DNA of 26,896 nt. Origin: Baffinella frigidus (lineage: Eukaryota; Cryptophyceae; Cryptomonadales; Baffinellaceae). The stretch is taken from NCBI GenBank assembly GCA_026770585.1, contig MU646312.1, positions 817,124-844,019 on the forward strand. The letters run 5' to 3'. This document shows, piece by piece, positions 1-24,500 of this stretch. The notes under the pieces are model-generated. The model worked only from the letters and a program-made list of their open reading frames with translations, did no database searches and was not told the DNA's origin. How positions within the stretch are numbered: the stretch's first letter is position 1; every line of letters begins with the position of its first letter. The translations under genes and the position numbers were made by a program.

Positions 1-104
1 CGTCAGTTGGCTGAGGATAGGGCGTCGGCTGGCAGGATAAAGTGTCGGTTGGCTGAGGATAGGGCGTCGGTTGGCTGAGGATAGGGCGTCAGTTGACAGG
101 ATAG
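1..104 (+). repeat. 20-bp repeat array a
   Basis: About five units of GTTGGCTGAGGATAGGGCGTC and variants; cut by the window edge. Its right side touches an exon 37-like fragment. Confidence 0.9.
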
Positions 105-6552: not shown

Positions 6553-9500
6553 ATCTATGCATCTATCCTGGAAGAGGAGAGAGGTCTCTCTCTGCACAAG
6601 CGCCTTGCAGACCGAGCCATCTCACTCACCTTCATTCAGGGTTCAGGGTTCAGGGTTCAGGGTTCAGGGTTCAGGGTTCAGGGTTCAGGGTTCAGGGTTC
6701 AGGGTTCAGGGTTCAGGGTTTAGGGTTTGAGGTTTAGGGTTTAGGGTTTGAGGTTTGGCGTTTAGGGTTCAGGGTGTAGGGTTAAGGGTTTGGGGTTTGG
6801 GGTTTGGGGCTTAGGGCTTAGGGCTTAGGGTTTAGGGTTTAGGGTTAAGGGTTTAGGGTTTAGGGGTTAGGGTTCAGGTAAACCAGGTTGTCATTGAAGG
6901 TGAGGGTGCCGAGGTGTTGCATGAACAACGCTTTATCCTCCCAACTGACGCCATATCCTCTGGCAACTGACGCCCTATCCTGCCAACTGCCGCCTTGGAC
7001 GAACCTGGTTGTCGTTGAAGGTGAGGGTCCCGAGATGGTGCATGAACATGAGTGCTTCCGGCACATCCACGATCGTGTTGTGGTCCAACTGCAGATAGTT
7101 TGGGGTTTAGGGTTTAGGGTTTTGATAATCCGCTCAAACGACTACGAGGCACACCCGCCCCGGATATCACGTGTACCGTGAGCTGCAGCGGGAAAGGGGA
7201 GTTGGGGTCAGAGTTCAACTGCAGAGGGGAAAGGGCTTGGGGTTTCGGGTTTGGGGGTTGGGGTTTCGGGTTTCGGGGGTGAGAGTTATGACGTCCACGA
7301 CCGTGTTGTGCTCCAACTGGAGAGGGGAAAGGGGTTTGGGGTCAGGGTTCAACTGCAGAGGAGAAAGGGCGTTGAGTTTGGGGTTTGGGGCTTGGGGTTT
7401 GGGGTTTGGGGTTTGGGGTTTGGGGTTTGGGGTTTGGGGTTTAGGGTTTAGGTTTAGGGTTAAGAGTTGGGGGGTGGAGTACAGGGCCTGAGGTGTAGAG
7501 TGTGGGGTTTCAGGTTCAGGGTTTCGGATTCTTAGGGTTTGCGCCTCAGGGTTTAGAGTTTAGGGTCTAGGGTCTAGGATCTAGGGTTTAGGGTTTAGGG
7601 TTTAGGGTTTGTGGTTTAGGGTTTAGGGTCTAGGGTCTAGGGTTTAGGGTTTAGGGTTTAGGGTTTAGGGACCTGGAGGCGCTTGAGATACTTGAGCTTC
7701 TTGAGCGCTGGGGGGACGCGCGCCAGGCCGTTTCCTGAAATGTTGGTTTGATTTGGGTGTTAGGGTGTGGGGTTTGGGGTTTGGGGGTCATGGTTTGGGG
7801 TTTGGGGTTTGGAGTTTGGTGTTCAGGGTTCAGGGTTCAGGGTTCAGGGTTCAGGGTCCAGGGTTCAGGGTTTGGGATTTGTGGTTTGTGGTTTGAGGTT
7901 TGTGGTTTGTGGTTTGTGGTTTGGGCTTTGGTTTTTGGGTTTAGGGCGGGGTTGGGGTTTCAGGGTTTGGGATTTGGGGTTTGGGGTTTAGGGCTCGGGG
8001 TTTAGTGTTCAGGGAGTGGGGTTTAGAGTCTGGGGTTTAGGGTTTAGGGTTTAGACCGTATAGGGCGAGGGCGGTGAGCGCGGCGCATGACCCGATGTGC
8101 GCAGGCACGGACGGAATCTTGCAAAACTGCCGCCTTATCCTGCCAACTGCCGCCCTATCTTGTACCAACTGACGCCCTATCCTCTGCCATCTGACATCCT
8201 ATCCTGCCAACTGACGCCCTATTCTCTGCCAACTGCCGCCCTATCCTACCAACTGCCGCCCTATCCTGCCAACTGACGCCCTAAGGGTTTGGGATTTACC
8301 GTAAAGGGCGAGGGCGGTGAGCGCGGCGCATGACCCGATGTGCGCAGGCACGGACGAGATCATGTTGTTGCCCTGCGGGGTTATATAACGATATTAGTCA
8401 GCACTATAATACTAGTAGTCAGCATTACCACACTATTCACCCCGCTATAATGATATTAGTCAGCACTATAATACTAATTCGGGGTTTTCGGGTTTTGTTA
8501 TAGTACCAAGTTGAGGGTGGAAAGCTTGTTGAGCTTTCTAGAAGGTTTGGGGTTTGGGGTTTTGGGGATTCCGGGTTTGGTATAGTACCAAGTGGAGGGT
8601 CGAAAGTCTGTTGAGCTGTCCGACGAGAGGGTGCACCGACGTGAGCAGATTGTCCCGATCTTCGGGCTTCGGGCTTCGGGTATTGGGGATTCGGAGATTC
8701 GGGTAGTACCAAGTTGAGGGTCGACAGCCTCTTGAGCTTTCGTGTTTTGGGGTTTCGTGTTTTGGGTTTGGTACAGTACCAAGTTGAGGGTCGAAAGCCT
8801 GTTGAGCTTTCTAGAAGGGGTGGGCTTTGGGGTTTGGGGGGTTCGATTTTTGGGCTTTGGAAGTACCAGGTTGAGGGTGGACAGGTTGAGCTGTCAGACA
8901 AGCGGGCGCACCGACGTGAGCAGGTTGTCCCGATTGTCGGGTTCCGAGTTTCCGCGTTCCGGGCTTCGGGTATTGGGGATTCGGGGATTCGAGTAGTACC
9001 AAGTTAAGGGTGGAGAGTCTGTTGAGCTTTCTCGAAGGTTTCGGGTTCGGGGGTTCGGGGATTCGGGGATTCGGAGATTCGGGTAGTACCAGGTTGAGGG
9101 TGGAGAGTCTGTTGAGCTGCCCGACGAGGGGTTCGAGGGTGGGCTTCGGGTTTCGGGCATCAGGTATTCGGGTTTCGGGTACTGGGGGTTCGGGTTCCGG
9201 GTAGTACCAAGTTGAGGGTGGAGAGTCTGTCCAGCTGTCCGACGAGCTTGGGTTTTGGGTTTCTGGGTGTTGGTTTCTAGTTCCCGGATTTCGGATTTTG
9301 GGTTCCGGGTTTCGGGTAGTACCAAGTTGAGGGTGGAGAGTCTGTTGAGCTGTCCGACGAGAGGGTGCACCGACGTGAGCAGATTGTCCTGCCACGAACG
9401 AGAGAGAAAATCAATCAACTTTCCTGCCACGAATGAGAGAAAGAATCAGTTAACGAACGAGAGAAATGACCACGTGAAGAACGAGAGAAACCATCACTTC

Positions 9501-12500
9501 AAGAAAGAGAGAAAAAAATAGTCAACTGTCCTGCCACGGACAGTCCTGCCACGGACAGTCCTGCCACGGACAAGACCGCCATCTTTTCACGGTTAAGACG
9601 GTCACGTGAGCAGGTTGTCCTGCCACGAACGAGAGAGAATTTCAGTCAACTTTCCTGCCACGAACATAGAGAAACGATCAGTTAACGCACGAGAGAAATC
9701 ATCACTCAAAGAATGAGAAAGACAATCAGTTACCTTTCCTGCCACGAACAAGAGAAAGAATCAGTCAACTGTCCTGCCTTTCGACACTTAAGACCGTGCT
9801 TTACTTTGTGACAAACTTCACTTGGTAAAGCAAACAAACGGACACTGGGAGGCTCATAACATAAAATGAGACTCATAACCTGCATCCACACCCTAAACTG
9901 TATCACTAAACCCCAACCCTAAAGCCTAAAGCCAAAACCTGCATCCAGAGCTGCTCGAGCATCTTGCACTCCCCGAGCACCGACGAAATCGTCTTTGTAA
10001 AGCAAAAAGTTGATTTTGTAAAGCAACACGTAGTGTGTTTGCTTTAGAAAGTAAACTTATTGCTTTATATAAAGTCAACTTGTTACGTTACAAAGTAAAC
10101 GTTTGTTTCACAAAGTCAAATTGTTGCTTTATACAGTCAACTTTTAAGCAACACGGGAGCCTCATAACATAAAAGAAGACTGATAACCTGCATCCAGAGC
10201 TGCTCGAGCATCTTGCACTCCCCGAGCACCGACGATATCGTCTTGATCTTGTTGTGCCCCTATGTCGGGGTGTGGGGTTTGTGGTTTGGGGTTCATGGTT
10301 TGGGGTTTGGGGTTTGGGGTTTGGGGTTTGGGGTTTGGGGTTTGGGGTTTGGGGTTTGGGGTTTGGGGTTTGTGGTTTGTGGTTTGGGGTGTGGGGTTTG
10401 GGGTTTNNNNNNNNNNGGGGTTTGGGGTTTGGGGTTTGGGGTTTGTGGTTTGTGGTTTGGGGTGTGGGGTTTGGGGTTTGGGGTTTGGGGTTTGGTTTTT
10501 GGGGTTCAGGGTTTGGGGTTTAAGGGTCCAGGGTTTGGGGTTTGGGGTTCAGTGTTTGGGGTTTGGGAGTAGGGTTTGCACCACTTGCAGGAGCTTGAGC
10601 GCCGTGTCATTCTCTTTATGATCTAAGGTTGATAGTTTGGGGTTTGGGTTTGGGGTTGGGGAATAGGTTTGAAACCGGTTGCAGGACCTTAGCGCTGTGT
10701 AATTCTCTTGATGACGTAGGGTTTAGAGTTTGGGGTTTGGGGTTTGGGGTTTGGGTTTGGGTTTTGGGTTTTGGGCTTTGGGTTTTGGTGTTTGGTGTTT
10801 GGGAACAGGGGTTGTACCGCTTGCAGTATCTTGAGCGCCGTGTAATTCTCGATGCAGTCTGGAATCATCTGTTTCGGGTGTCGGCTTTTGGGTTTATGGT
10901 TCATTTTGTATGGTTTATGGTTTATGGTTTATGGTGTATGGTTTATGGTGTGTGGTTTGTGCTTTATGGTTTATGGTTTATGGTTTATGGTTTATAGTTT
11001 ATGGTTTGTGGTTTATGGTTTATGGTTTAGGTATTAGGGTTTTGAGTTTGTTGTTTGTTGTTTGTGGTTTCGGGTTTAGGGTTCAGGGTTCAGGATTGAG
11101 GGTAAAGTGTTAGGGTTCAGGCTTTAGGGTTTAAGGTTTAGGGTTTAGTGTTTAGTGTTTAGGGTTTAGGGTTTAGGGTTTAAGGTAAGGGTTGATGGCT
11201 CAGGGTTTAGGGTTTAGGGCTTAGGGCTGACCTTGAACTCGTTGCGGCGGATGTCGAGGGTAGTGAGATTCCGGAGAGATGACATGTGTTCCGGGAAATC
11301 GACAATCCGGTTGCCTGCGAGAGGGAGAGACCGTTATTAAAACCGACAGTTGACAGGATAGGGCGTCAGTTGGAAGGATAGGGCGTCAGTTGGCAGAGGA
11401 TAGGGCATCAGTTGACAGGATATGGCGTCAGTTGGCAAGATAGGGCATCAGTTGGCAGGATCAGGGTTTGGAGACATGGCATAAGTTCCGAAAAATCCAC
11501 GATCCGTTTGCCTGCGAGAGGGAAAAACCGGTTTTAGTACCAAGGATTTTCGGGTTTCGGGTTTCGGGTTCACGGGTGCGGGGTTCCAGTTTCCTGAGAG
11601 GATCAAAGGGTTTAGGGCTTATGATTTGCATGAAATAAAATCCGAATGCAAGGGTTTCCGTATGAACCCACGCCAACACCCCAAACCCCAAGCCCTCAGA
11701 CCTCAACCCTAACACTGTACCTGAGAGATCGAGCAAGACGAGAGCCGTCATCTTGCCCATTTCGCCAGGGACGAGCGAGCACAGGCTGTGCCCTGTAGCT
11801 AATCCGCTACAAGTTTTGTACCGGAGTGTTTTACGCTTGTACCACGATCCGGACGTTTGTACCGGGCTACATCCGAGTTGTAGCGGGATTAGGGGTACCT
11901 GATGTATCGTCAAGTGTAGAGACACTTAGCTGGAGCCCTTTCTGGACGCTTTAAGTTCATGGTTTGACGTCATATGTTCAATAAAACTCTCTGCTCTGTA
12001 CCCTTCAGGATTAGGGGTGCCTGAGAGATTGAGCGCGACGAGGGCCGTCATCTTGCCCATCTCGCCAGGGACGAGCGAGAGGAGGTTGTGTGAGATCCTC
12101 AGGACCTGTGGTTTGGGGTTTTGGGTTTTTGTTTTGTTTTTTTGTTTTTTGTTTTTGGGGTTTGGGGTTTGGGGTTTGGGGTTTGGGGTGGTTCGGGGTG
12201 TGGGATTGGGGTTTGGGGTTTGGGGTTTAGGGTTTAGGGTTTAGGGTTTGGGGTTTGGGGTTAAGGTGTAAGATTTAAGTTTTTAGGTTTGGATTTGGGT
12301 TTAGGGTTTAGGGTTCAGGGTTCAGGGTTCAGGGTTCAGTGTTCAGGGTTTGGGGCTTAGGGTTTGGTGCTTGGGGTGTAGGGTTTGGTGTTTGGGGTTG
12401 AGGGTTGGAGAACCTGCAGTCGTCGCATTGCCTTGATCTCTTTCGGTATGACCTGGTTCAGGGTTTATGGTTCAGGGTTTATGGTTTAGGGTTTCGGGCT

Positions 12501-15500
12501 TAGGGTTTAGGGTTTAAGGGTTTCGGGCTTCGGGTTTAGGGTTTAGGGTTTAGGGTTCAGGGGTGAGGGTTTAGGGTTTCGTGGTTTGTGTTACTGTGCA
12601 GGGTTTCAGGTTTCGGGTTTCGGGGTTAAGGGTTCGGGTTTCGATTTCAGGGACTACGGTTTCGGGTTTCGGGTTTCGGGTTGAGGGTGCAGGACCAATG
12701 TCCGTCGTAGGGTCCCTCGGAAAAGTGAGGGGTTTAGGGATTAGGGGTTCGACTGCTATGAGGCTGTTATGCAGGTTGAGCAACCGCACGCACATCATCA
12801 CTGTACAAACATGAACCCTAAACCCTCAGACCTAGACCCTAAGACCTAGATCCTCAGAGGCTGGTTTAGACTTTAGACTTTAGGTCTGAGGGTTTAAGTC
12901 TTAAACCCGTGCCGCGGAGTCGATTTGTTTGAAGGGTTAATAACTACGGTGAAGAACTAGCGTTTTAGAGGCAGGAATTCAGGTTCAGATATAGAGTAGG
13001 GCAAGAAGGTTCGGGTTTCAGGGGGCACACCGTAATCAAGTTGTTGTGTAGGTCCAGGGATCGCACAAACATCATCCCCCCCCCATTGATAATCCCCGTC
13101 AACGTCCCCTCCCCTGTCTCCGTATCCGAATCTGGATCCTCCTGAATCCCCCTCCCCCCGCGACTTGAACTCCCGTCTCCCCCGCCCTCGTCCTCTGAAT
13201 CTGATGATTTATGGTTTTGGTTTCAGATTTGTGGTTTATAGTATACATGGTTTATGGTTTATGGTTTATGGTTTTTGGTTCAGGTCTCCGTATCAGAGTC
13301 CGGATCTTCCTGAATCCCCCTCCCCCCGCGACTCTCCCCGTCGCCCCCGTCTCCCTCCTCTGAATCTGATGAGGGTTTAGGGTTTTGGTTGACGATTTAT
13401 GGTTCGTGGTTTATGGTTTAGGATTTATGGTTTATGGTGCATGGTTCATGGTTCTTAAGTTATGGTTTTGAGTATCGGAGTCCGGGTCCTCCTGAATCCC
13501 CCTCCCCCCGCGATTTGAACTCCCGTCTCCCCCGCCCTCGTCCTCTGAATCTGAGGGTTTTGGGGTTGGGGTTCAGGGATTATTTGTGGAAGCAGTCACA
13601 CTCGCGTCAAGGACGCCGTTTTGTGAAGTCCGCGGCTCTCTCGTGAAGCGCATCTCGTCTCAGGCTCATAACCTCTTTCTTAAAGTGGCTCTCGGGTGAG
13701 GCTCATACCACACAGCGGGCTACGAAGGGATTTTCGACCCAATTCGGGCCGACGTTCCGTTACCTTATCCGTTGGAACCCCCCTATGTCCCTACGGTACT
13801 AGCTACCGTAGGGCCTATGGACCATTCACCAAAGGGTTATTCAAACTCCCGTCGAAGTCCGCTGTGTGGATAGAAAGGGAGGATCATAACCTTAGTCGTC
13901 GTCGGAGTCAATATCGCCAGCCCCCTTGGCCATCCTACACGGGACTGTGTCCCTATCCGTTCGGATATCCGTAGGAACGACCCTATGTCCCTACGGATCG
14001 CCTACGGATCGCCTACCGTAGAATCCTATGGATTATCCACATACCGCAGGATGATAACCCGATTCGACATCGGAGTCGATATCGCCCCCTCGACCGTCGC
14101 TTCCAGCGCCTGCTCTATTTCTTCCAGTAGAGCAGTCACCTGGGGGCGCGACTCCCTTGCAAGGGGGTCGCAAGGGGGTTTCAAGGCGGGTGCGACCCCC
14201 TTATAAGGCTCATAACGCACGATTATAACCTGAGTCGGCGTCGGAGTTGATATCGCCAGCCCCCTTGGCCGTCGCTTCCAGCGCCAGCTCTATCTCCTCA
14301 GCCAGCTGCTGGGAGTCCACCGTCGACACGCTTTTGATCTGCATACAACCACAAAATCCAGGGTGTTACAGAGCGGAATCCAGCCGAGTGCGAGCCTCTA
14401 AGGGCAGGTGAAGTGACATATTTGAAGGTTTCAGGCGTGGGGTGTGGGGATTAGGGTTTGGGGGTTGTGAGGTGAGAGAAGTCTCCTCCCCCCTTGGCCA
14501 CCATCGACACGCTTTTGATCTGCTCCGGGATGATGATTTAGGGTTCGAGTTCAGGGGGTTGGGCGGGGTTTAGGGTTAGGTTTCGAGCGCTAGCTCGATT
14601 TCTTCTGCGAGTTTCTGGGAATCGACTGTCGACACGCTTTTGATCTGTAAAAGTTGTTTGGGGTTTGGGGTTTGTAAGGTGAGAGATATCCCCCCGAAAT
14701 GACGGGAATTTTAGGGGTTGGGGTTTAGGGTTTAGGGTTTAGGGTTTAGGGTTATTGACCTCCTCGGGATCGTCGTCGCTCCACTCTGCCTCGCTTCCGT
14801 GCTTCATTCGCACCTTGGTTTAGGGTTTAGAGTTTAGGGTTTAGGGTTTAGGGTTTGGGTTTGGAGGTTTGAGGTTTGAGGTTTGGGTTTTGGGTTTGGG
14901 GGTTTAGGGTTTATGGTTTATGGTTTATGGTTTATGGTTTATGGTTTGGGTTTTAGGTTTGATGGTGAATGGTTTCTTGTTTAGGAATTAAGGTGCACGC
15001 AAATTATGGCTCATTACTAAACCATGCTTGGTTGCGTGACTAAACCATGCAGCAGGGTTAGGGCTATGCGTTGCGCACCGTAAGATGATACCACCCGGTC
15101 CTTGCCACCCGATGGCAGGCTCGATTTGGTCCAGTTTGGAGGGCTCGGTATAGGGCCCCTTATGGCGCTTAGGTAGGTCCGGTTGTACCTTTAGTATCGA
15201 GCACTTGGTCCTTAGTTCGAGCCCTCTCTGGACGCCTCAAGGTTATGGTCCGATGTCATAAGTTCAATACAAGTCTCTTCTCATGGCGCCCTTTATGGCT
15301 CCGCATCCGTCCCGCCACAGGTGGACGAAACAACGCCACAAGTTGACGAAGCTCGTCAACTTTCACCGTAGCGTTTTCAAAATAATGCTTCGAAACACGG
15401 TGTGTTTCAAACTTCATGCATGAATTTCCTTGAGGTGCTACCACCCTGTCCTTGCCGCCCTATGATAACACCACAAGCTTTCACGCGTGAGCCCCTTAAG

Positions 15501-18500
15501 GTCTTCACGCGTGGGCACCTTACTTGAGCCATTGATGGTTAAAAGGGGTTTTCAAAATTTCAAAATAATCACTGCCTCCACTTTACTACACGTTTGACAA
15601 TCAACGGCTCAAGTAAGTCCTCACGCGTGAGCACCTCAAGGGTCTCACGCGTGAAAGCTTTTTGCTTGAATGACGCCCCTTAACCAAGCCCTCCGAAGTG
15701 GATCAAACCGAGCCTGAAGCGTGAGTCATTTCCTTCCGCCAGAGCCTCGAATTCAAAGCTCGACGACTACAAAATCCTTTCCCGGAAAGGTCGATTTGAA
15801 GTACCTTGAGATGGTACCACCCTGCCCTGGCCGCCCGATGGCGCCCCTTATGCCTCCGCATGCGCCCCTGGTCCGACCCCACCTCCGCACACCCATTATG
15901 CAGCTCGATACACCTGGTGTAGCGTCTCAGGATTGAGTCAGGAGGCCTCAGGATAAAGGTCAGAGGGTTATGGTCCTGGTTTCACCCCACCTCCGCACAC
16001 CCATTATGCTACTCGATACACCCAGTGTGGGGGTTGGGGTTTGGGGTCTGGGGTTTGCGAATCCTGCCAACTGCCGCACTATCCTGCCAACCCGTGTGTC
16101 TCCGCATTCGCCCCTGGTCCGACCCGACATCCGCGCACCCATTATACACCTGATTTCGTAGCGTTCAGGGTTCAGCGTTTAGGGTTTGGGGTTTGGCGTG
16201 CCCCTTGCCTCCACGTCCATCCCCTGGTTGGGTTATGGATTTTGGGGTTTGGGGTTTGGGGTCCGACCCAACCTCTGCGCAACCATTATGCCACTCGATA
16301 AACCTGGGTTTGGGGTGTAGGGTTTAGGGTTTAGGGTTTAGGGTTTAGGGTTTAGGGTTTAGGGTTTAGGGTTTAGGTTTTATGGTGTAGGACCTACAAC
16401 CCACCGCCCCTAGGGTCGTAGGGCTTTGGGTTTAGGGTTTAGGCTTTGGGTTTAGGGTTCCCGGTTTGGTGAAGGTGCTTTGGGTTTAGGGTTTAGGGTG
16501 CACAAGCGGCATGGAGGCACGATTTCCGACGTCAAGGATTCGTTGTTTGTTGTTTGTGGTTTGGTGTTTGGTGTGTCGGGTATCAGGTTTAGAATTTAGG
16601 TTTAGGGGAAAACCAGCGACACGGCGGCTCAATTTCTGGAGGGCCGAAACGCTCCACGAAAAATTCGTACACCGCTTCCTGGATGCGCGTTTGGGGTTTA
16701 GGGGTTCAGAGTCATGATTTAGGGTTTATGATTGGGTTTTGGGTTTTGGGGTTTGGGGTTTGGGGTTAAGGGTTTGGGGTTTGGGGTTTGGGGTGTGGGG
16801 TTTAGGGTTTGGGGTTTGGGGTTTGGGGTTTGGGTTTTTGAGTTTGGAGTATGAGGTTTCAGGTTTCGGGTTTCGGGTTCAGTTGTTAGGGTTCGATGAG
16901 TTTTTAGTGAGGGTTTGGTGAGGGTGTATAGAGGGTTTAGTGAGGGTTTAGTGAGGGTTCACGGAGGGTTTAGTGAGGTGGTAGTGAGGATTCCTGGAGT
17001 GGTGAAGGTTCCTGGATGGTTTAGGGTTTGGGGTGTACCTCATCCGGCAGCATCCCAACATCTTTGTCCTCTCCCTAGTTCTTCATCATCATTTTTCGGG
17101 GTTTGTTTTTCATTTTTCGGGTTCGGGGTTTCGAGTTTGGGGGTTGAAGTTGGGGTTTCGTGTTTCGTGTTTCGAGTCTCCGGTTTGGCGTTTAGGGTTG
17201 AGGGGTTCGGTTCGGTTTTGATCATTGGGTATTGGGTTTGCGGTTTGCGGTTGAGTGGTTCGGGTCTTGGTTTTCAGGGGGTTAGGGTTGATGGTTCAAG
17301 GGTTTCGATTCGGAGAGGTGTTTGACCTCATCCGGCAGCATCCCAACATCCTTGTCCTCCTTCTTGTTCTTCATCATTTCGTCAACCCCATTATACCCCA
17401 GCGCAAACGCATACCACCCCCTGAACGACTCGAAAATCTGGTACGGGTTTGGGTTTTAGGGATTAGTGACTAGCGTTGAGTGTTTAGTGTTTAGTGTTTA
17501 GTGTTATGTATGGTCATACAGGGTGTAGGATTTAGTAGTTAGTGTTTTGTGTTAAGTGCTTGGGGTGTAGGGTGTAGGGTTTAGTGTTTAGGGTTATTCA
17601 TCGTTTCGTCGACCCCATTATACCCCAGCGCAAACGCATACCACCCCCTGAACGACTCGAAAATCTTGTGTGGGGCTTATGGATTAGTTTATCATTTCTC
17701 AGGGGTTTCACTTATTAGTGTTTATAATTGCGGGTTTAGGAATCAAAGTCTAGGGTGTGGGGTTTAAAGTCTAGGGTTTAGGGTTTGGGGTTGGTGTTAG
17801 GGTATAATGTTTTCATGTAGGGTGTAGGATTTAGTAGTTAGTGTTTTGTGTTAAGTGCGTGGGGTTTAGGGTGTAGGGTTTAGTGTTTAGGGTTCTTCAT
17901 CGTTTCGTCAACCCCATTATATCCCAGCGCAAACGCATACCACCCCCTGAAGGACTCGAAAATCTGGTGTGGGGTTTAGGGTTTAGGGTTTAGGGTTTAG
18001 GGTTTAGGGTTTAGGGTTTAGGTGTTCGGGTTTCGGGTTTCGGGTTCAGGATCCAGGGTTCAGGGTTCAGGGTTCAGGGTTTAGGGTTTAGGGTAAGAGT
18101 TTAGTGTTTAGGGTTCAGGGTTCAGGGTTTAGAGTTTGGGGATCGAAAACCTGCTCGCCAGTGCGCAGCTTGTGTCTTTGCCGCACCGCCGTCCCCGGAG
18201 AGCTTTCTATTACCTGTTCCTCCAAAGGGCGCGTTTTCAGTGACGCAAATGAAAATTACTACACAGCGACTGTACTGGTACTAGAATGCTCTTGTTTGTG
18301 TAGTAATCGCTTGCGGAATTGCGCGTGTTCCACAGATTCTCGTCCGCGAAAAGACGCGATTCCGCGAGCGATTACTACACGAAAAGTATCATCTATACTA
18401 GTACATCAGCTGTGTAGTAATTTTCGTGCGCGCTTGTGCGCAGCTTGTCTCTCCGCCGAACCGCCGTCCTCGGAGAGCTTTCTATTACCTAGAACGCGAA

Positions 18501-21500
18501 AAGGCGCGCTTTTAGGGAGTCTCGTCCGCGAAAGAGTCTGTTTTCAGGGTGTCTCGTCCGCGAAACGGCGTCTTTCACGGGCCGTGAAACGCTGATAAAC
18601 ACACACCGTGTGTCAGACACTCACGCGGCGGCTAAAAGGGCACTTTCCAGGGAGGCGCGTCCACGGAACGGTGCGCTTTTACGATTTCACTGGAGGGGGG
18701 CCAAACCGCGTCCTCAAAAAAATCCGAATGTTGACTAGCGTCTTAAAACCCCCAAAATGCGCGATTTCACGGAAGGGGAGAAGACGAATTCCGTAAGCGG
18801 ATCCAGCGCGTTTTCAGGGGTCTTATACCCGAAACGGCGCTTTCAGGGTGCCTCATCCGTGAAAGGGTGCGTTTTCAGGATGTCGCGTCCGCGAACGAGC
18901 CCTATTTCGAGTGTCTCGTCCGCGAAAGGTCGCCCTTTTGATATTCGCGGGAGCCACGCAGCGGGCTTCGAAGGGATTTTCGGCCCAAATCGGGCCACCT
19001 TTCCGTAACCTTATCTGTAGGAACCCCCCTATGTCCCTACGGGTTGCCTACCGTAGGGTCGTAGGTCTTATCGCTTAGCGGTTATTCAAAACCCCTTCGA
19101 AGTCCGCTATGTGGGGGGGCAAACCGCGTCTTCGACGAATTCCGAAAGTGGGTCCCAGACTGCGTCTTCTTCGTCGAGATCGGAGTCCTCGTACCCGAAA
19201 CAGCGCGCTTTCAGGGAGTCTCATCCGCGAAAGGGTGCGTCGTCAGGATGTCGCGTCCGCGAAAAGAGCCCTATTTCGAGTGTCTCGTCCGCAAAAGGGC
19301 GCGTTTTCGACATTCGCGGGAGGGGGGGCAAACCGCGTCTTCGACGAATTCCGAAAGTGCATCCCAGACCGCGTCTTCTTCGTCGAGATCGGAGTCCTCG
19401 TCCGGATCGAGGCCTAGTGATTCTTTCATCGCTCTTTTTTCCGCATCCTTGATGTCCTACGATCGGATAGGGCGTCAGTTGGTAGGATAGGGCGTCCGTT
19501 GGCAGGATAGGGCGTCAGTTGGCAGGATAGGGCGTCGGTTGGCAGGATAGGGCGGCATTTGGCAGGATAGGGTATCAGTTTGTAGGATAGCGACGCTTTC
19601 ATCGCTCTCTTTTCCGCATCCTTGATATCCTGCGCAGGATCGCGGAAAACCGTTTATCAGCATGCCCGAAAAAACTCATTCGCGTTATAACCCCGGGGCC
19701 TTGAAACAGAGGCCACGGCCGGGCTGAGGGTGCAGGGTTCAGGGGACGATCGTGATAAGTCATCAGCGCGGCTGTGGAAGTCATCAGCATCCACGACTGC
19801 AAAAGTCGTGGCATCGCTACAAAAGTCGCAACACATCCATACCCGTGAAAGTCACTTACATCGCGATCAGAGTCATCGGCAAAGCCTACGAGACCGAGTC
19901 TTCTAGAGACTCTCTTATCAAGGGAAAAGAAATTTAAATCGTTTCTGGCAATGAAAATTACTACGCAGCTGAATCATACTAGAAACAGTGGAGCAAATGC
20001 ACTCGGAGCCAGAACATTTCGCTCAAGTCAACTCCCCCTGAAAACCAGCGCCTTAAGTCAAATGCCTGCCATGGTGGCAGGGTCCATCTAAACGAAATCA
20101 GGGGAAAGTCGACTTAGGTGAGCTGGTTGACTTAGCTGAAATCTTGTGACTTGGAGTGAAATGGGTAGGAGAGGCTCACAACCTTGATTTCGCGCTTGTG
20201 TAGGCGCTGCTGCTCCTCGGCGAACACTCGGAGATACCTTCGGGAGAGTTTGGGGTTAAGAGTACCACCACACGGTGGACAACGAACCGTTCATCAAAAG
20301 TAAACTTGCCTTCGAAAGTCAACTTGGCAATTAGGGAGGGTTTGGGGTTTGAGGATTGGGGTTTGGGATTTGGGGTTTGGGTTCAGGTTTATCTCCGAGT
20401 GTTCGCCGAGGAGCAGCACCTGGTTTGGGGTGTATGGTTTAGGTTGGAGCCTAGTTCATGGTTTATGGTTCATGGTTTATGGTTCAGGGTTCAGAGTTCA
20501 GAGTTAGGGCTGAGGGTTTATGCGAAAGCTTGAGGGCTTGAAACCTCCTCGACTTCAGGGTTTCTGGTTTCTGGTGTCTGGTTTCGGTGTTCGGTTTTTG
20601 TGTTTCGGGATTTGGATTTCGTTTTTTGTGTTTCGTGTTTCGTGGTCTGGATTTTGGACTTCGGGTTTCGGGTTTCGGGTTTCTAATTTCGGATTTCGGA
20701 TCTGGCGTTTGGGGTTTCGTGTTTCGGGGTTTGGGTTTCGGGATTTCGGATTTCGGATTTAGCGTTTGGGGTTTGGGGTTCAGGGTGTAGCGTTTGGGGT
20801 TTAGGGTTTAGGGTTTAGGGTTCAGGGCTTAGAGTACCGGTCGATCCCAGAGCGCTTCCACCGATCGAGCCTGTCCACGAAGAAGTGGTAGACCGCGCAA
20901 AACAGCGACCTTATCCTGCCAACTGCCGCCCTATCCTCTGCCAACTGCCGCCCTATCCTGCCTAACCGACGCCCTATCCTCGCAGCTGCCGCCCTTTCCT
21001 GCCAACTGCCTCCCTATCCTGCCAAACCGACGCCCTATCCTACCAAACCGACGCCCTATCCTGCCAACTGACGTCCTATCCGGTTTGGGGTTTGAGGTTG
21101 AGAGTACCGGTCGATCCCAGAGCGCTTCCACCGATCCGGCCGGTCCACCTGAAATAGGGTTTGGGGGTTAGGGTTTTGGGTTTGGGGTGTGGGGTTCAGG
21201 ATCTTGGGTTCAGGATGTCTTTAGAAAATTATTCAGGGTTTGGGGGACAGGGGGTTAGGTTTTTTTTAGAAGAGGGTGTAGGGTTTAGGGTTCGGGGTTT
21301 AGGGTGTAGGGCTCAGGGTTTGGGGTTTAGAGGTTTAGGTTGATTTAGAAAAGGGTGTAGGGTCTACGCGTTAGGGTTTAGGGGTTTCACCTTAATGATG
21401 TCTTTCGGAATCGCCAATAGCTCGAATCCCGAGAGGTTCACGTGTCCCTCCATCCTCCCGCGTTTGACCTGGCTCAGGGTTTCGGGTTTAGGGTGCAGGG

Positions 21501-24500
21501 CTGTGTACCACTTAGCAGCCATCGCGGCCTTGGACGATGTGTCCATCTAAACGATTCTGGTACACATTGCAATTCATTTCAGGGTGGGGGGCTTGAAATG
21601 ATCCCCGGAAATCCGGGGAAGAGAGAACTCGGGCGCTGTTAAGTGGCCAGGGTTCAGGGTATGCACCCGCGTTTTACCTGGTTTAGGGTCTGGGGCTTCT
21701 GTTTTCGGGTTTCAGGTTCCGGGCTCCGGGTTCTGGGTTCGGGGTTTCGGGTTTCGGGTTTCGGGTTGAGGATTTACCTCGCTGACGTACTCGAGTGCGA
21801 GCCACGGGGTCTTGGCAACTTCCGGGGGGGCGTCGCCCAGAAAGTTACCGTACAAGTTTGGTACCAGGGTGGTTTATCGTTTTTATTATTATTGTTATTG
21901 ATTTTACTGAATTCAGGGTTTGGGAGGTAGAAATACCTCGCTGACGTACTCGAGTGCGAGCCACGGGGTCTTGGCAACTTCCGGGGGGGCGTCGCCTGGG
22001 GTTTCGGGTTTCGGGTTTCGGGTTTCGGGTTTACGGTGTAGGGTTTAGGTTTCAGGGTCTAGGGTGTAGGGTTTAAGGTTTGGGGTTTAGTGTTGAGGGT
22101 TTGAACCTTTTCTTCTCAAATATCGCCAGGGTGTAGGGTGTAGGGTGTAGGGGGTGTACCGAGAAAGTTGCCGTTCAAGTGGACGTCGAGCAGGTTCACC
22201 AGACGCGTGATCTTGTCGGGCAGCTGTTTCGGAGTTGAGGGGTTAGGGTCGGTGATCGCGTGGGGGTTGTCGAGCATGTTCCGCCTCGCACTGGCATGAT
22301 CCTACCAACTGACGCCCTATCCTGCCAACTGACGCCCTATCCTGCCAACTGACGCCGTATCCTGAAAACTGTTTTGGGGCGTGTGGTTTAGGCAGACCCC
22401 CCACACGAGGCTGATCGAGCACCTAATTCAAAAGTCCAAAGGTTCACAATGTATTCATTGTGTAGTAATTTTCATTGGGTTGATCACGCGTCACCCCGTG
22501 TTTCGGGGCGACACGTGACCAACCCAATGGAAACGCCTGCACTCCACTTTTATTCTGGGTGCTTGGGCAGCCTGGTGTAGCCCTTGAGGATATCGGATGA
22601 GAAGTCCTGGCGTTGAGAGTTAGGTTTAACTACACCGTTGCTAGGCTTGAGGGTGGTCTAGCGTTTGGTGTTTGGTGTTTGGAGTTTGGGGTGTGGGATT
22701 TGGGGTTTGGGGTCTGGGGTCGGGGGTCTGTGGTTTGGGGTTTGGGGTTTGGGGTTTATGGTTCATGGTTTCGGGTTGAGGGTGTAGGGTTTGGGGTTTA
22801 AGGTTTAGGGGTTATGGTGTAGGGTTCAATGATTCAGAATGAGGGTTTAGCGTTTAGGGTTTAGAGTTTAAGGTTTAGGGTTTAGGGCTTAGGGGTGACC
22901 GCAACAAGGAAGTTGTTCTCGCAGGAGAGAGAACGCAGACGCGTCAGCTCGCACACCTGCCCCAGGATAGGGCGTCAGTTGGCAGGATAGGGCGTCGGTT
23001 TGGCAGGATAGGGCGTCAGTTGGCAGGATATGGCGGCAGTTGGCAGAGGATAGGGCGTCAGTTGGCAAGATAGGGCGGCAGTTGACAGGACAAGATTTGA
23101 AGTTGTTCTCGCAGGAGGGAGAGCGCAGACGCGTCAATTCGCACACCTGTTAGGGATTAGGGATTAGGGATTAGGGTTTCAGGTTTCGGGTTTCGAGTTC
23201 AGGGTTTAGAGTTTAGGGCTGGTGGTTTCAGGATTCGGGTTTAGGTTTTAGGGTTTCAGATGTAGGGCTTGTGGTTTTGGGTTTCGAGTTTCGGGTTAAG
23301 GGTTGGATGGTTTCAGGTTCCGGATTTTGGATGGTTTTGGATTTCGGGTTTCGGGTTAAGGGTTGGATGGTTTCAGGTTCCGGATTTTGGATTCAGGGTT
23401 TAGGGTTTAGAACCTCGTCGCACAGCATTGCGAGCCTGTTCTTGTCGAGGTTGAGCGATCCGAGGGAAGTGAGGCCTGCGTTTAGGGTTCGGAGTTCAGG
23501 GTTTGGGGTTAAGGGTTTGGGGTTTGTGATCTGTGATTTGTGGTTTGTGGTTTGGGGTTTAGATTTTGTGGTTTGGGGTTTGGGGTTTAGGGTTTAGGGT
23601 TTAGGGTTTAGGGTTCAAGGTTGAGAGTTTAGGGTTTAGGGTTTGGGGTTTAGGGTTTAAGGTTCAAGGTTGAGAGTTTAGGGTTTAGGGTTTAGGGTTT
23701 AGGGTTCAAGGTTGAGAGATTAGGGTTTAGGGTTTGGGGTTTACTCGCGATTTCCGACGGGAGAATTTCGATGGCGTTGCGCGCGAGGGACCTGGGTTGA
23801 AGTTTTGGATTTGGGGTTTGGTATAAAAACCCACACCCCACATACACTACACCCTAAACCCACACCCCACATACCGTCAGGGCAAGGGACCTGGGTTGGA
23901 GTTTTGGATTTGGGGTTTGTTATGTGGGGTGTGGGGTTTGGGGTTTGAGGTTTGGGGTTAGGGTATTGGGGTGTGGGGTGTGTGGTTTGGAATGTGGGGT
24001 ACCGTATTTAGGGTACGAAGTTTGGGGCTTGGGGTTTAGAGTTTGGGTCTAGGGTTTAGGGTTCAGGAATGAGTTTTTAGGGTTTGGGGGTTAGGGTTTG
24101 GGGTTGGCATGGAGGTGACGCTGGCGAGCGACATGATCTCGAGCGGGACCCGGAGGTAGGACGATCTGCCAACTGACGCCCTATCCTCTGCCAACCGACG
24201 CCCTATCCTGCCAAACCGACGCCCTATCCTGCCAAACCGAAGCCCTATCCTCCCAACTGACGCCCTATCCTGCCAACTGACGCCCTAAGGGTTTGGGGTT
24301 TTGACATGGAGGTGACGCTGGCGAGGGACATGATCTCGAGCGGGACCCGGAGGTAGGACGACCTGGTTCAAGGTTTGGGGTTTAGTGCTTGGGGTGTAGT
24401 GTGTTTAGAGATCCGTGTTTAGGGTTCAGGGTATCTGGTTCAGAGTTTAGAGTATCCACCTTGGTTTAGGATGTAGAGATTAGGGACCTTGGTTTAGGAT

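What the first reader, a model, noticed from the sequence alone, without database searches (positions are those of the whole stretch)
6884..24362. 20-bp arrays sit between two copies of the same exon segment
Arrays b, c, d, f, g, i and j (seven of ten) each separate an exon from a 40-80 bp direct copy of it (exons 30, 28, 24, 14, 12, 8 and 5). Array e lies among exon 18 copies, h is an exception, and a is cut by the window. Both orientations occur. This looks like a very long target duplication or a duplicate-and-fill repair of a break, and I know of no described element that does this. Some arrays directly provide the splice acceptor (24166, 22957).
Basis: seen in the sequence. Interest (0 to 1): 0.87.

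Follow-up and report, generated by a model that had tools for sequence, protein, structure and literature searches.

The report
Repeat arrays flanked by duplicated exons
In one intron-rich gene of an unidentified eukaryote, short tandem-repeat arrays sit between two direct copies of a 40-80 bp piece of the neighbouring exon, as if each array had been pasted into a widely staggered DNA break that crossed a splice site, which would lengthen the intron while leaving one intact exon.

Summary
The window holds part of a minus-strand leucine-rich-repeat gene (19 exons modelled) with introns rich in telomere-like repeats. In 7 of these 8 the copies end within 11 bp of the array on both sides. Two corrections. 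First, such duplications are not array-specific: 44 of 51 adjacent duplication pairs hold other filler, including an inverted-repeat element and another tandem array. Arrays are, however, the most consistently flanked class. Second, the acceptor at 22957 lies in the duplicated exon edge, not in the array. The arrays are not locally amplified, show no fixed ends, and the duplications vary in length. Best reading: preformed satellite DNA was captured at widely staggered breaks, with fill-in. Survivors are those whose duplication spans a splice site, leaving one complete exon and a longer intron. This is a long-stagger, satellite-filled variant of known staggered-break and tandem-duplication intron growth. 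The own-genome search did not complete, so genome-wide generality and empty alleles are untested.

The parts
1..104 (-). 20-bp array a, cut by the window start
6928..6994 (+). array b
6881..6927 (-). second, truncated exon copy (donor side) next to array b; partner of 7002-7048
   Evidence: 89% over 47 bp
7002..7048 (-). first exon copy, duplicated part with donor, next to array b
8116..8283 (+). array c
8039..8113 (-). second, truncated exon copy with donor and intron edge, next to array c
   Evidence: 94% over the 67 unmasked bp
8284..8356 (-). first exon copy, duplicated part; begins at the base after array c
11344..11466 (-). array d
11273..11344 (-). duplicated acceptor-side part of the complete exon, next to array d
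   Evidence: 79% over 72 bp
11470..11541 (-). first, truncated copy with acceptor, next to array d
16061..16091 (+). array e, little more than one unit, among several copies of one exon (15805-16303)
19465..19590 (-). array f
19415..19461 (-). duplicated acceptor-side part of the complete exon 19331-19456
   Evidence: 87% over 47 bp
19588..19634 (-). first, truncated copy of that exon with acceptor
20901..21081 (+). array g
20812..20889 (-). second exon copy with donor, next to array g
   Evidence: 94% over the 48 unmasked bp
21082..21160 (-). first exon copy with donor; begins at the base after array g
22299..22371 (+). array h, no flanking duplication at the thresholds used
22963..23090 (-). 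array i
22909..22959 (-). duplicated acceptor-side part of the complete exon 22900-22956
   Evidence: 92% over 51 bp
23099..23149 (-). first, truncated copy of that exon with acceptor
24166..24287 (+). array j
24093..24164 (-). second copy of a whole 57-bp exon and its intron edge
   Evidence: 98% over the unmasked 57 bp
24288..24361 (-). first copy of the same exon; begins at the base after array j
18244..18426 (.). non-array comparison: nested inverted-repeat (MITE-like) filler, flush between two 92-bp copies (18152-18243, 18427-18518) that carry exon O
   Evidence: one inverted-repeat arm runs to 18432, 6 bp into the right copy
9996..10145. non-array comparison: unrelated 21-bp tandem array (10039-10143) and its edges, between two 60-bp exon-like copies 9936-9995 and 10185-10244 (98%); flush on the left, 39 bp away on the right
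14760..26825 (-). host gene, exons A to S as modelled; 50-51% identical to predicted proteins P0001 and P0002 where they overlap

Best explanation
Each flanked array is a piece of a pre-existing dispersed 20-bp satellite that was captured when a widely staggered break (offset about 40-80 nt) in or next to an exon was repaired. Both single-stranded overhangs were filled in, so the stretch between the two nicks (Y) now stands on both sides of the insert: X-Y-array-Y-Z. Insertions survived when Y contained a splice site. If Y holds the acceptor, the downstream copy is the complete exon and the upstream copy became intron; if Y holds the donor, the reverse. The net effect is a longer intron with one complete exon kept. 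SHOWN: the array-copy association, near-flush edges, side of the truncated copies, variable duplication length, no local amplification, no fixed ends. INFERRED: the staggered break, the fill-in, the capture, the order of events and the splicing outcome.
For: 8 of 9 arrays flanked, against 0 of 72 mismatched flank pairs and 11.3% of random sites. In 7 of 8 flanked arrays both copies end within 11 bp of the array, and on the right-hand side of c, g and j the copy starts at the very next base; this is hard to obtain if a tandem duplication came first and the array landed in it later. Duplication lengths vary (39-79 bp by local alignment), unlike a transposase with a fixed stagger. Units are no more alike within an array than between arrays (0.860 and 0.859, permutation P 0.47, 47 units; 0.800 and 0.797, P 0.43, 54 units including some edge fragments), so arrays look inserted ready-made. 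End phases are scattered (P 0.66; start phases P 0.06). Of 20 copies, 12 are one-sided: 7 acceptor-side copies lie upstream and 4 donor-side copies downstream of the complete exon, as X-Y-filler-Y-Z requires; the 12th (exon L) disagrees as scored, but I had set that exon's end wrongly and the copy carries the donor. In b, c, d, f, g, i and j the duplicated stretch spans a splice junction (my reading; exon ends of b, c and d have no homologue support). Other filler types stand in the same geometry, one inverted-repeat element flush on both sides. For the exons next to f, g, i and j, homologues P0001 and P0002 run through the region as one protein with each segment once. In print, tandem duplications arise by fill-in at breaks with protruding ends (PMC8355091 introduction; PMC5730883 passages), and Daphnia neo-introns show staggered-break direct repeats.
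Against: Generic break repair should treat all filler alike, yet arrays are flanked much more often (8 of 9) than telomere-like tracts (7 of 42 at 50 bp or more, random 5.0; 12 of 59 at 30 bp or more, random 8.0) or other hand-picked inserts (4 of 18); younger age of the arrays could explain this but was not tested. Staggers of 40-80 nt are long for spontaneous breaks (my judgement). The copies differ mostly at third codon positions (11, 9 and 28 mismatches at positions 1, 2, 3; 18 amino-acid differences against 26.5 expected if one copy had been non-coding since the duplication, P 0.006; pos-3 P 0.047), which the dead-copy view does not predict. Array h has no duplication. No empty allele was seen.
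Confidence: 0.55

Rival explanations
1. The arrays are a mobile element in their own right: satellite DNA or its RNA copied in by a dedicated endonuclease or reverse transcriptase that cuts the two strands 40-80 bp apart, giving a long, variable target-site duplication.
For: The duplication is more regular around arrays than around the other fillers counted (8 of 9 against 7 of 42 and 4 of 18). Ten dispersed array sites of one family lie in 27 kb, in both orientations. Widely spaced cuts exist: R9, 126 bp (PMC6895275 passage). Start phases lean weakly to one position (P 0.06).
Against: Array ends are not fixed (end-phase P 0.66). I noticed no terminal inverted repeat, but did not test for one, and no search for an enzyme was made. 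The same geometry occurs with an inverted-repeat element, another tandem array and microsatellite filler.
Confidence: 0.2
2. [quoted passage not shown] arrays and other repeats later accumulated in the new intron between the copies.
For: Duplications without arrays are common in this gene (44 of 51 adjacent pairs; 100 direct against 5 inverted matches at 31 bits or more and gaps under 600, redundant counts). A potato intron arose from a duplication crossing an intron-exon boundary (PMC4974935 passages).
Against: Later insertions should usually land inside one copy, but 7 of 8 arrays sit within 11 bp of both copy edges.
Confidence: 0.12
3. Both copies are still coding (duplicated or alternative exons), and the arrays are ordinary intron filler between repeated exons of an expanding LRR protein.
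For: Third-position excess, no gaps in the aligned copies (with a gap-averse local aligner) and fewer amino-acid changes than a dead-copy model gives (P 0.006).
Against: Twelve of 20 copies hold only one side of the exon. One donor-side copy has an in-frame stop (P3). Homologues carry each mapped segment once. Does not explain flush edges.
Confidence: 0.08
4. Assembly artefact: haplotypes or paralogues joined wrongly through shared arrays.
For: One 10-base N run at 10407-10416 shows scaffolding. Synonymous-biased differences would also fit copies taken from two functional alleles.
Against: Copy identity in the coding pairs ranges from about 84% to 100%, not one haplotype distance. The same geometry occurs at several unrelated fillers. 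The only N run is inside a telomere-like tract, not at an array.
Confidence: 0.05

Closest known systems
Staggered double-strand-break repair in Daphnia neo-introns (PMC4202315, passages)
   Same: Insert in a gene flanked by a direct repeat of the adjacent exon, attributed to repair of a staggered break; repeated events enlarge the intron.
   Different: There the exon-sharing repeats are 4-12 bp; here 39-79 bp, with satellite arrays as filler.
Direct repeats near intron borders in general (PMC11782384, abstract)
   Same: Direct repeats at or near intron/exon borders taken as the mark of insertion at a double-strand break.
   Different: 4-30 bp, mean 11.4, in 213 introns there; longer here, with a recognisable repeat-array filler.
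Small tandem duplications from fill-in at protruding break ends (PMC8355091 abstract and introduction; PMC5730883 passages)
   Same: A segment between two offset nicks is duplicated by fill-in and joined by end joining.
   Different: Those are described as duplications of the protruding segment; here a foreign repeat array stands between the copies.
[quoted passage not shown]
   Same: The duplicated stretch crosses an intron-exon boundary and brings its splice signals along.
   Different: No filler between the copies in the passages I saw; single event.
R9 and similar site-specific LINEs with widely spaced cuts (PMC6895275 passage; R9 paper seen only as a reference)
   Same: Very long target duplication caused by offset cleavage.
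   Different: R9 is an rDNA-specific retroelement with a 126-bp stagger; the arrays look non-coding, lie in a protein gene and have variable duplications.
Introner elements (PMC9860276 and PMC7789003, passages)
   Same: Repeated families of inserts found as introns, some taking splice sites from the target duplication.
   Different: Reported target duplications are 3-9 bp in previously characterised families (PMC9860276) and direct repeats of 3-5 nt in Amoebophrya; tandem arrays are not mentioned in the passages I saw. Here existing splice sites are duplicated rather than made.
Interstitial telomeric sequences inserted at breaks (PMC7215372, passages)
   Same: Short tandem repeats inserted at a break, occasionally with a direct duplication attributed to a staggered break.
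   Different: Duplication alone in 3 of 66 horse loci there; here 8 of 9 arrays, and the repeat is not telomeric.

Membership tests
Staggered-break insertion (Daphnia type) | Direct repeat of the adjacent exon at both ends of the insert, above chance | tested here: met
   8 of 9 arrays; 0 of 72 mismatched flank pairs; 11.3% of random sites
Staggered-break insertion (Daphnia type) | Insert abuts the repeats | tested here: met
   7 of 8 within 11 bp on both sides; e has gaps of 7 and 21
Staggered-break insertion (Daphnia type) | Insert-free allele known | not tested
   Own-genome search did not complete
Introner elements | Many sequence-similar copies at different intron positions | tested here: met
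   Ten array sites in one gene, outside the exons as modelled or read; number in the genome unknown
Introner elements | Defined element ends | tested here: not met
   End phases random, P 0.66; start phases P 0.06
Introner elements | Short target duplication where one is present | tested here: not met
   39-79 bp here against 3-9 bp in print
Cut-and-paste DNA transposon | Constant, short target duplication | tested here: not met
   Lengths vary from 39 to 79 bp by local alignment
LINE-like element with long target duplication (R9 type) | Long target duplication | tested here: met
LINE-like element with long target duplication (R9 type) | Fixed 3' end, source element with reverse transcriptase | tested here: inconclusive
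   Ends not fixed; no source element was sought, since the genome could not be searched
Tandem-duplication intron gain | Duplicated stretch carries splice signals | tested here: met
   Splice junction inside the duplicated stretch in b, c, d, f, g, i, j (read by eye)
Tandem-duplication intron gain | New intron spliced out in RNA | not testable with these tools
   No RNA reads

The most novel reading that the evidence does not exclude
A dispersed satellite moves as whole arrays through a dedicated insertion machinery that cuts the two strands 40-80 bp apart. The resulting very long target duplication carries a splice site with it, so that insertions into short exons are automatically hidden in a longer intron: a 'satellite introner' that protects its host gene by duplicating the splice site.
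Probability: 0.2. Interest if true: 0.85.

Novelty: new variant of a known kind. Interest (0 to 1): 0.62.

Why it matters
How introns grow and arise is a long-standing question, and the staggered-break model rests on short repeats (4-12 bp next to exons in Daphnia). Here the same kind of signature is 39-79 bp long, well above chance, and found at eight arrays of one gene with recognisable filler, so break position, filler source and splice-site rescue can be read off directly. If it holds genome-wide, this organism is a natural laboratory for intron growth, and the duplicated splice site would explain simply why insertions into very short exons are tolerated.

Tried and rejected
Null reading that the duplications are array-blind: rejected in part, because arrays are flanked 8 of 9, telomere-like tracts of 50 bp or more only 7 of 42 against 5.0 at random. 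That comparison is uneven: telomere-like letters were masked in the search, so copies made of them cannot be seen, and many tracts are longer than the arrays. Local expansion of a single inserted unit: not supported. Fixed element ends: not supported. Arrays as direct source of the splice acceptor: rejected at 22957, ambiguous at 24166. A rule that the array 5' end always faces the exon interior held by eye in b, c, d, f, g, i but not in e; dropped. Dead-copy model for the truncated exons: disfavoured but left unexplained. In one search I used 13 of the 20 copies: the six copies of exon R were dropped (no homologue support) and one of two similar acceptor-side copies of exon P; with all 20 copies the mismatches are 19 of 339, 16 of 340 and 51 of 342 at codon positions 1, 2 and 3. 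The 18 non-array inserts were picked by hand.

Organism: not identified. The 20-mer had no exact match in viral contigs or genome contigs, both with the warning that the window's own genome may be left out; P0001 found no relative in viral contigs. A 17-mer of an inverted-repeat element gave 15 viral-contig matches, probably chance and not read. Rfam: 0 matches at gathering scores.

Not in print as far as searched: the nine paper searches gave no listed title or abstract start that describes satellite arrays between long exon duplications; I opened only the papers named here. What I saw of papers: passages of PMC4202315, PMC9860276, PMC7789003, PMC7215372, PMC5730883, PMC4974935, PMC2861651 and PMC6895275; abstract, outline and introduction of PMC8355091; abstracts and outlines of PMC11782384 and PMC12730881. 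Vaughn and Bennetzen 2014, Schiml 2016 and the R9 paper were seen only as citations.


Full report
WHAT THE WINDOW IS. The sequence is eukaryotic. The minus strand carries a leucine-rich-repeat gene. Nineteen exons of 41-126 bp were modelled by hand from 26825 down to 14760; 18 of the 20 rows listed have AG before and 18 of 20 have GT after, ends that I chose with that in mind. Their joined translation matches predicted proteins P0001 (51% over 79% of the query) and P0002 (50% over 87%) and Pfam LRR families; the mapped part of P0001 and P0002 follows the exon order from 26825 to about 16616, and each segment occurs once there by my reading. LRR-like motifs occur further down, to about 2400. 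The introns are rich in telomere-like repeats in one orientation: five heptamers count 522 on the + strand and 21 on the - strand. The organism could not be named.

CHECK OF THE OBSERVATION. The 20-bp unit is not a chance find (39 matches, 0 expected). Eight of nine complete arrays lie between direct copies. Three controls were used: random placement of array-sized segments (1.26 of 9 expected, 0 of 2000 trials as high); left flank of one array against right flank of another (72 pairs, maximum score 21; own scores 33-57 for b, c, d, f, g, i, j, 22 for e, 8 for h); and random 120-bp sites in the same duplication-rich window (11.3% at 22 or more, binomial P 2e-7).

GEOMETRY. Aligning the flanks gives edge-to-array gaps (left, right) of b 0,7; c 2,0; d 4,3; e 7,21; f 3,5; g 11,0; i 3,8; j 1,0. 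So, e apart, the filler is the array and little else. The duplicated stretch spans an intron-exon junction in b, c and g (donor), d, f and i (acceptor) and j (a whole 57-bp exon), read by eye from the sequence with the exon ends; for b, c and d these ends have no homologue support. Over the modelled exons, 20 copies were found within 900 bp for 11 of 19 exons; 8 exons had none at the threshold. Twelve copies are one-sided, four whole and four internal. Of the twelve, 7 acceptor-side copies upstream and 4 donor-side copies downstream of the complete exon fit an X-Y-filler-Y-Z insertion. The twelfth, exon L, disagrees as scored, but I had set its end too far into the intron and the copy in fact carries the donor. 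Each event thus leaves one complete exon and, if the truncated copy is skipped, only a longer intron. That last step is inferred; no RNA was available.

NOT ONLY ARRAYS. Direct copies within 600 bp are frequent in this gene: 100 direct against 5 inverted matches at 31 bits or more (redundant counts), and 51 adjacent pairs at 38 bits or more after a greedy removal of nested ones, of which 7 hold an array (e is not among these 7). Not all 51 are exonic, and some belong to multi-copy families such as 8499-9361. Fillers include telomere-like tracts, microsatellites, an unrelated 21-bp array (copies 98% identical around 9996-10184) and a nested inverted-repeat element at 18244-18426 that is flush with two 92-bp copies carrying exon O. 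Still, the rates differ: 8 of 9 arrays, 7 of 42 telomere-like tracts of 50 bp or more (random 5.0; 12 of 59 and random 8.0 at 30 bp or more; Fisher P 8e-5), and 4 of 18 other hand-picked inserts at the score. Either arrays are the youngest inserts, whose duplications are still readable, or they have their own insertion route. My data do not separate these.

WHAT THE ARRAYS TELL. Units are no more alike inside an array than between arrays (0.860 and 0.859, P 0.47, 47 units; 0.800 and 0.797, P 0.43, 54 units), so there is no sign that the arrays grew in place from one unit. Phases at array ends are scattered (P 0.66) and at starts only weakly clustered (P 0.06), as expected for fragments of a longer satellite. 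Duplication lengths run from 39 to 79 bp by local alignment, which speaks against a fixed-stagger transposase.

AN UNEXPLAINED POINT. In homologue-supported exons (13 pairs) the copies differ at 11, 9 and 28 sites of codon positions 1, 2 and 3, with 18 amino-acid differences where a model with one dead copy gives 26.5 (P 0.006; third positions P 0.047). Either some copies were used as coding for a time, or the copies come from diverged functional alleles, or my simple model is too crude. It weakens the plain statement that the truncated copies are dead.

SPLICE ACCEPTORS. At 22957 the AG belongs to the duplicated exon edge, since the array starts at 22963. At 24166 the AG lies in bases shared by copy and array. 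The arrays therefore need not supply acceptors, though they may supply upstream sequence of the intron.

COMPARISON WITH WHAT IS KNOWN. The nearest described process is repair of staggered breaks with direct repeats of the exon, in Daphnia 4-12 bp long (PMC4202315 passages); direct repeats of 4-30 bp near 213 introns are reported in PMC11782384 (abstract). Tandem duplications by fill-in of protruding break ends are documented (PMC8355091 introduction; PMC5730883 passages). A potato intron arose from a duplication crossing an intron-exon boundary (PMC4974935 passages). Long staggers exist in R9, 126 bp (PMC6895275 passage). Introners have short target duplications, 3-9 bp where previously characterised (PMC9860276 passages). 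What I did not find described is the combination: very long duplications, satellite arrays as the filler, many events in one gene, and splice sites inside the duplicated stretch. I file it as a new variant of staggered-break or tandem-duplication intron growth, not as an introner, because fixed ends and short target duplications were tested and not met.

LIMITS.

Noticed in passing
1071-1231, 13708-13869, 18954-19114: Three copies of an inverted-repeat element of about 161 bp with 27-bp arms 85-89% complementary, MITE-like; none has a flanking duplication above the threshold (scores 7, 11, 14).
   Followed up: partly
whole window: Telomere-like heptamers are almost all in one orientation (G-rich on +, C-rich in the transcript; 522 to 21). 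Selection for splicing or the insertion process could cause this.
   Followed up: no
20208-20236 and 20390-20418: An exact 29-bp inverted copy of an exon piece, a rare inverted case among many direct ones.
   Followed up: no
9880, 10190, 13670, 13895, 14215, 20165 (approximate): Several introns seem to begin in the transcript with a shared motif like GTTATGAGCCTC, perhaps an introner-like family; seen by eye in the output.
   Followed up: no
10407-10416: A run of ten N inside a telomere-like tract, showing scaffolding of the assembly.
   Followed up: no
21778-21836 and 21937-21995: Two copies of a 59-bp exon with no mismatch, one of them fused to a copy of the end of the preceding exon (by eye); probably the most recent duplication seen here.
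   Followed up: partly
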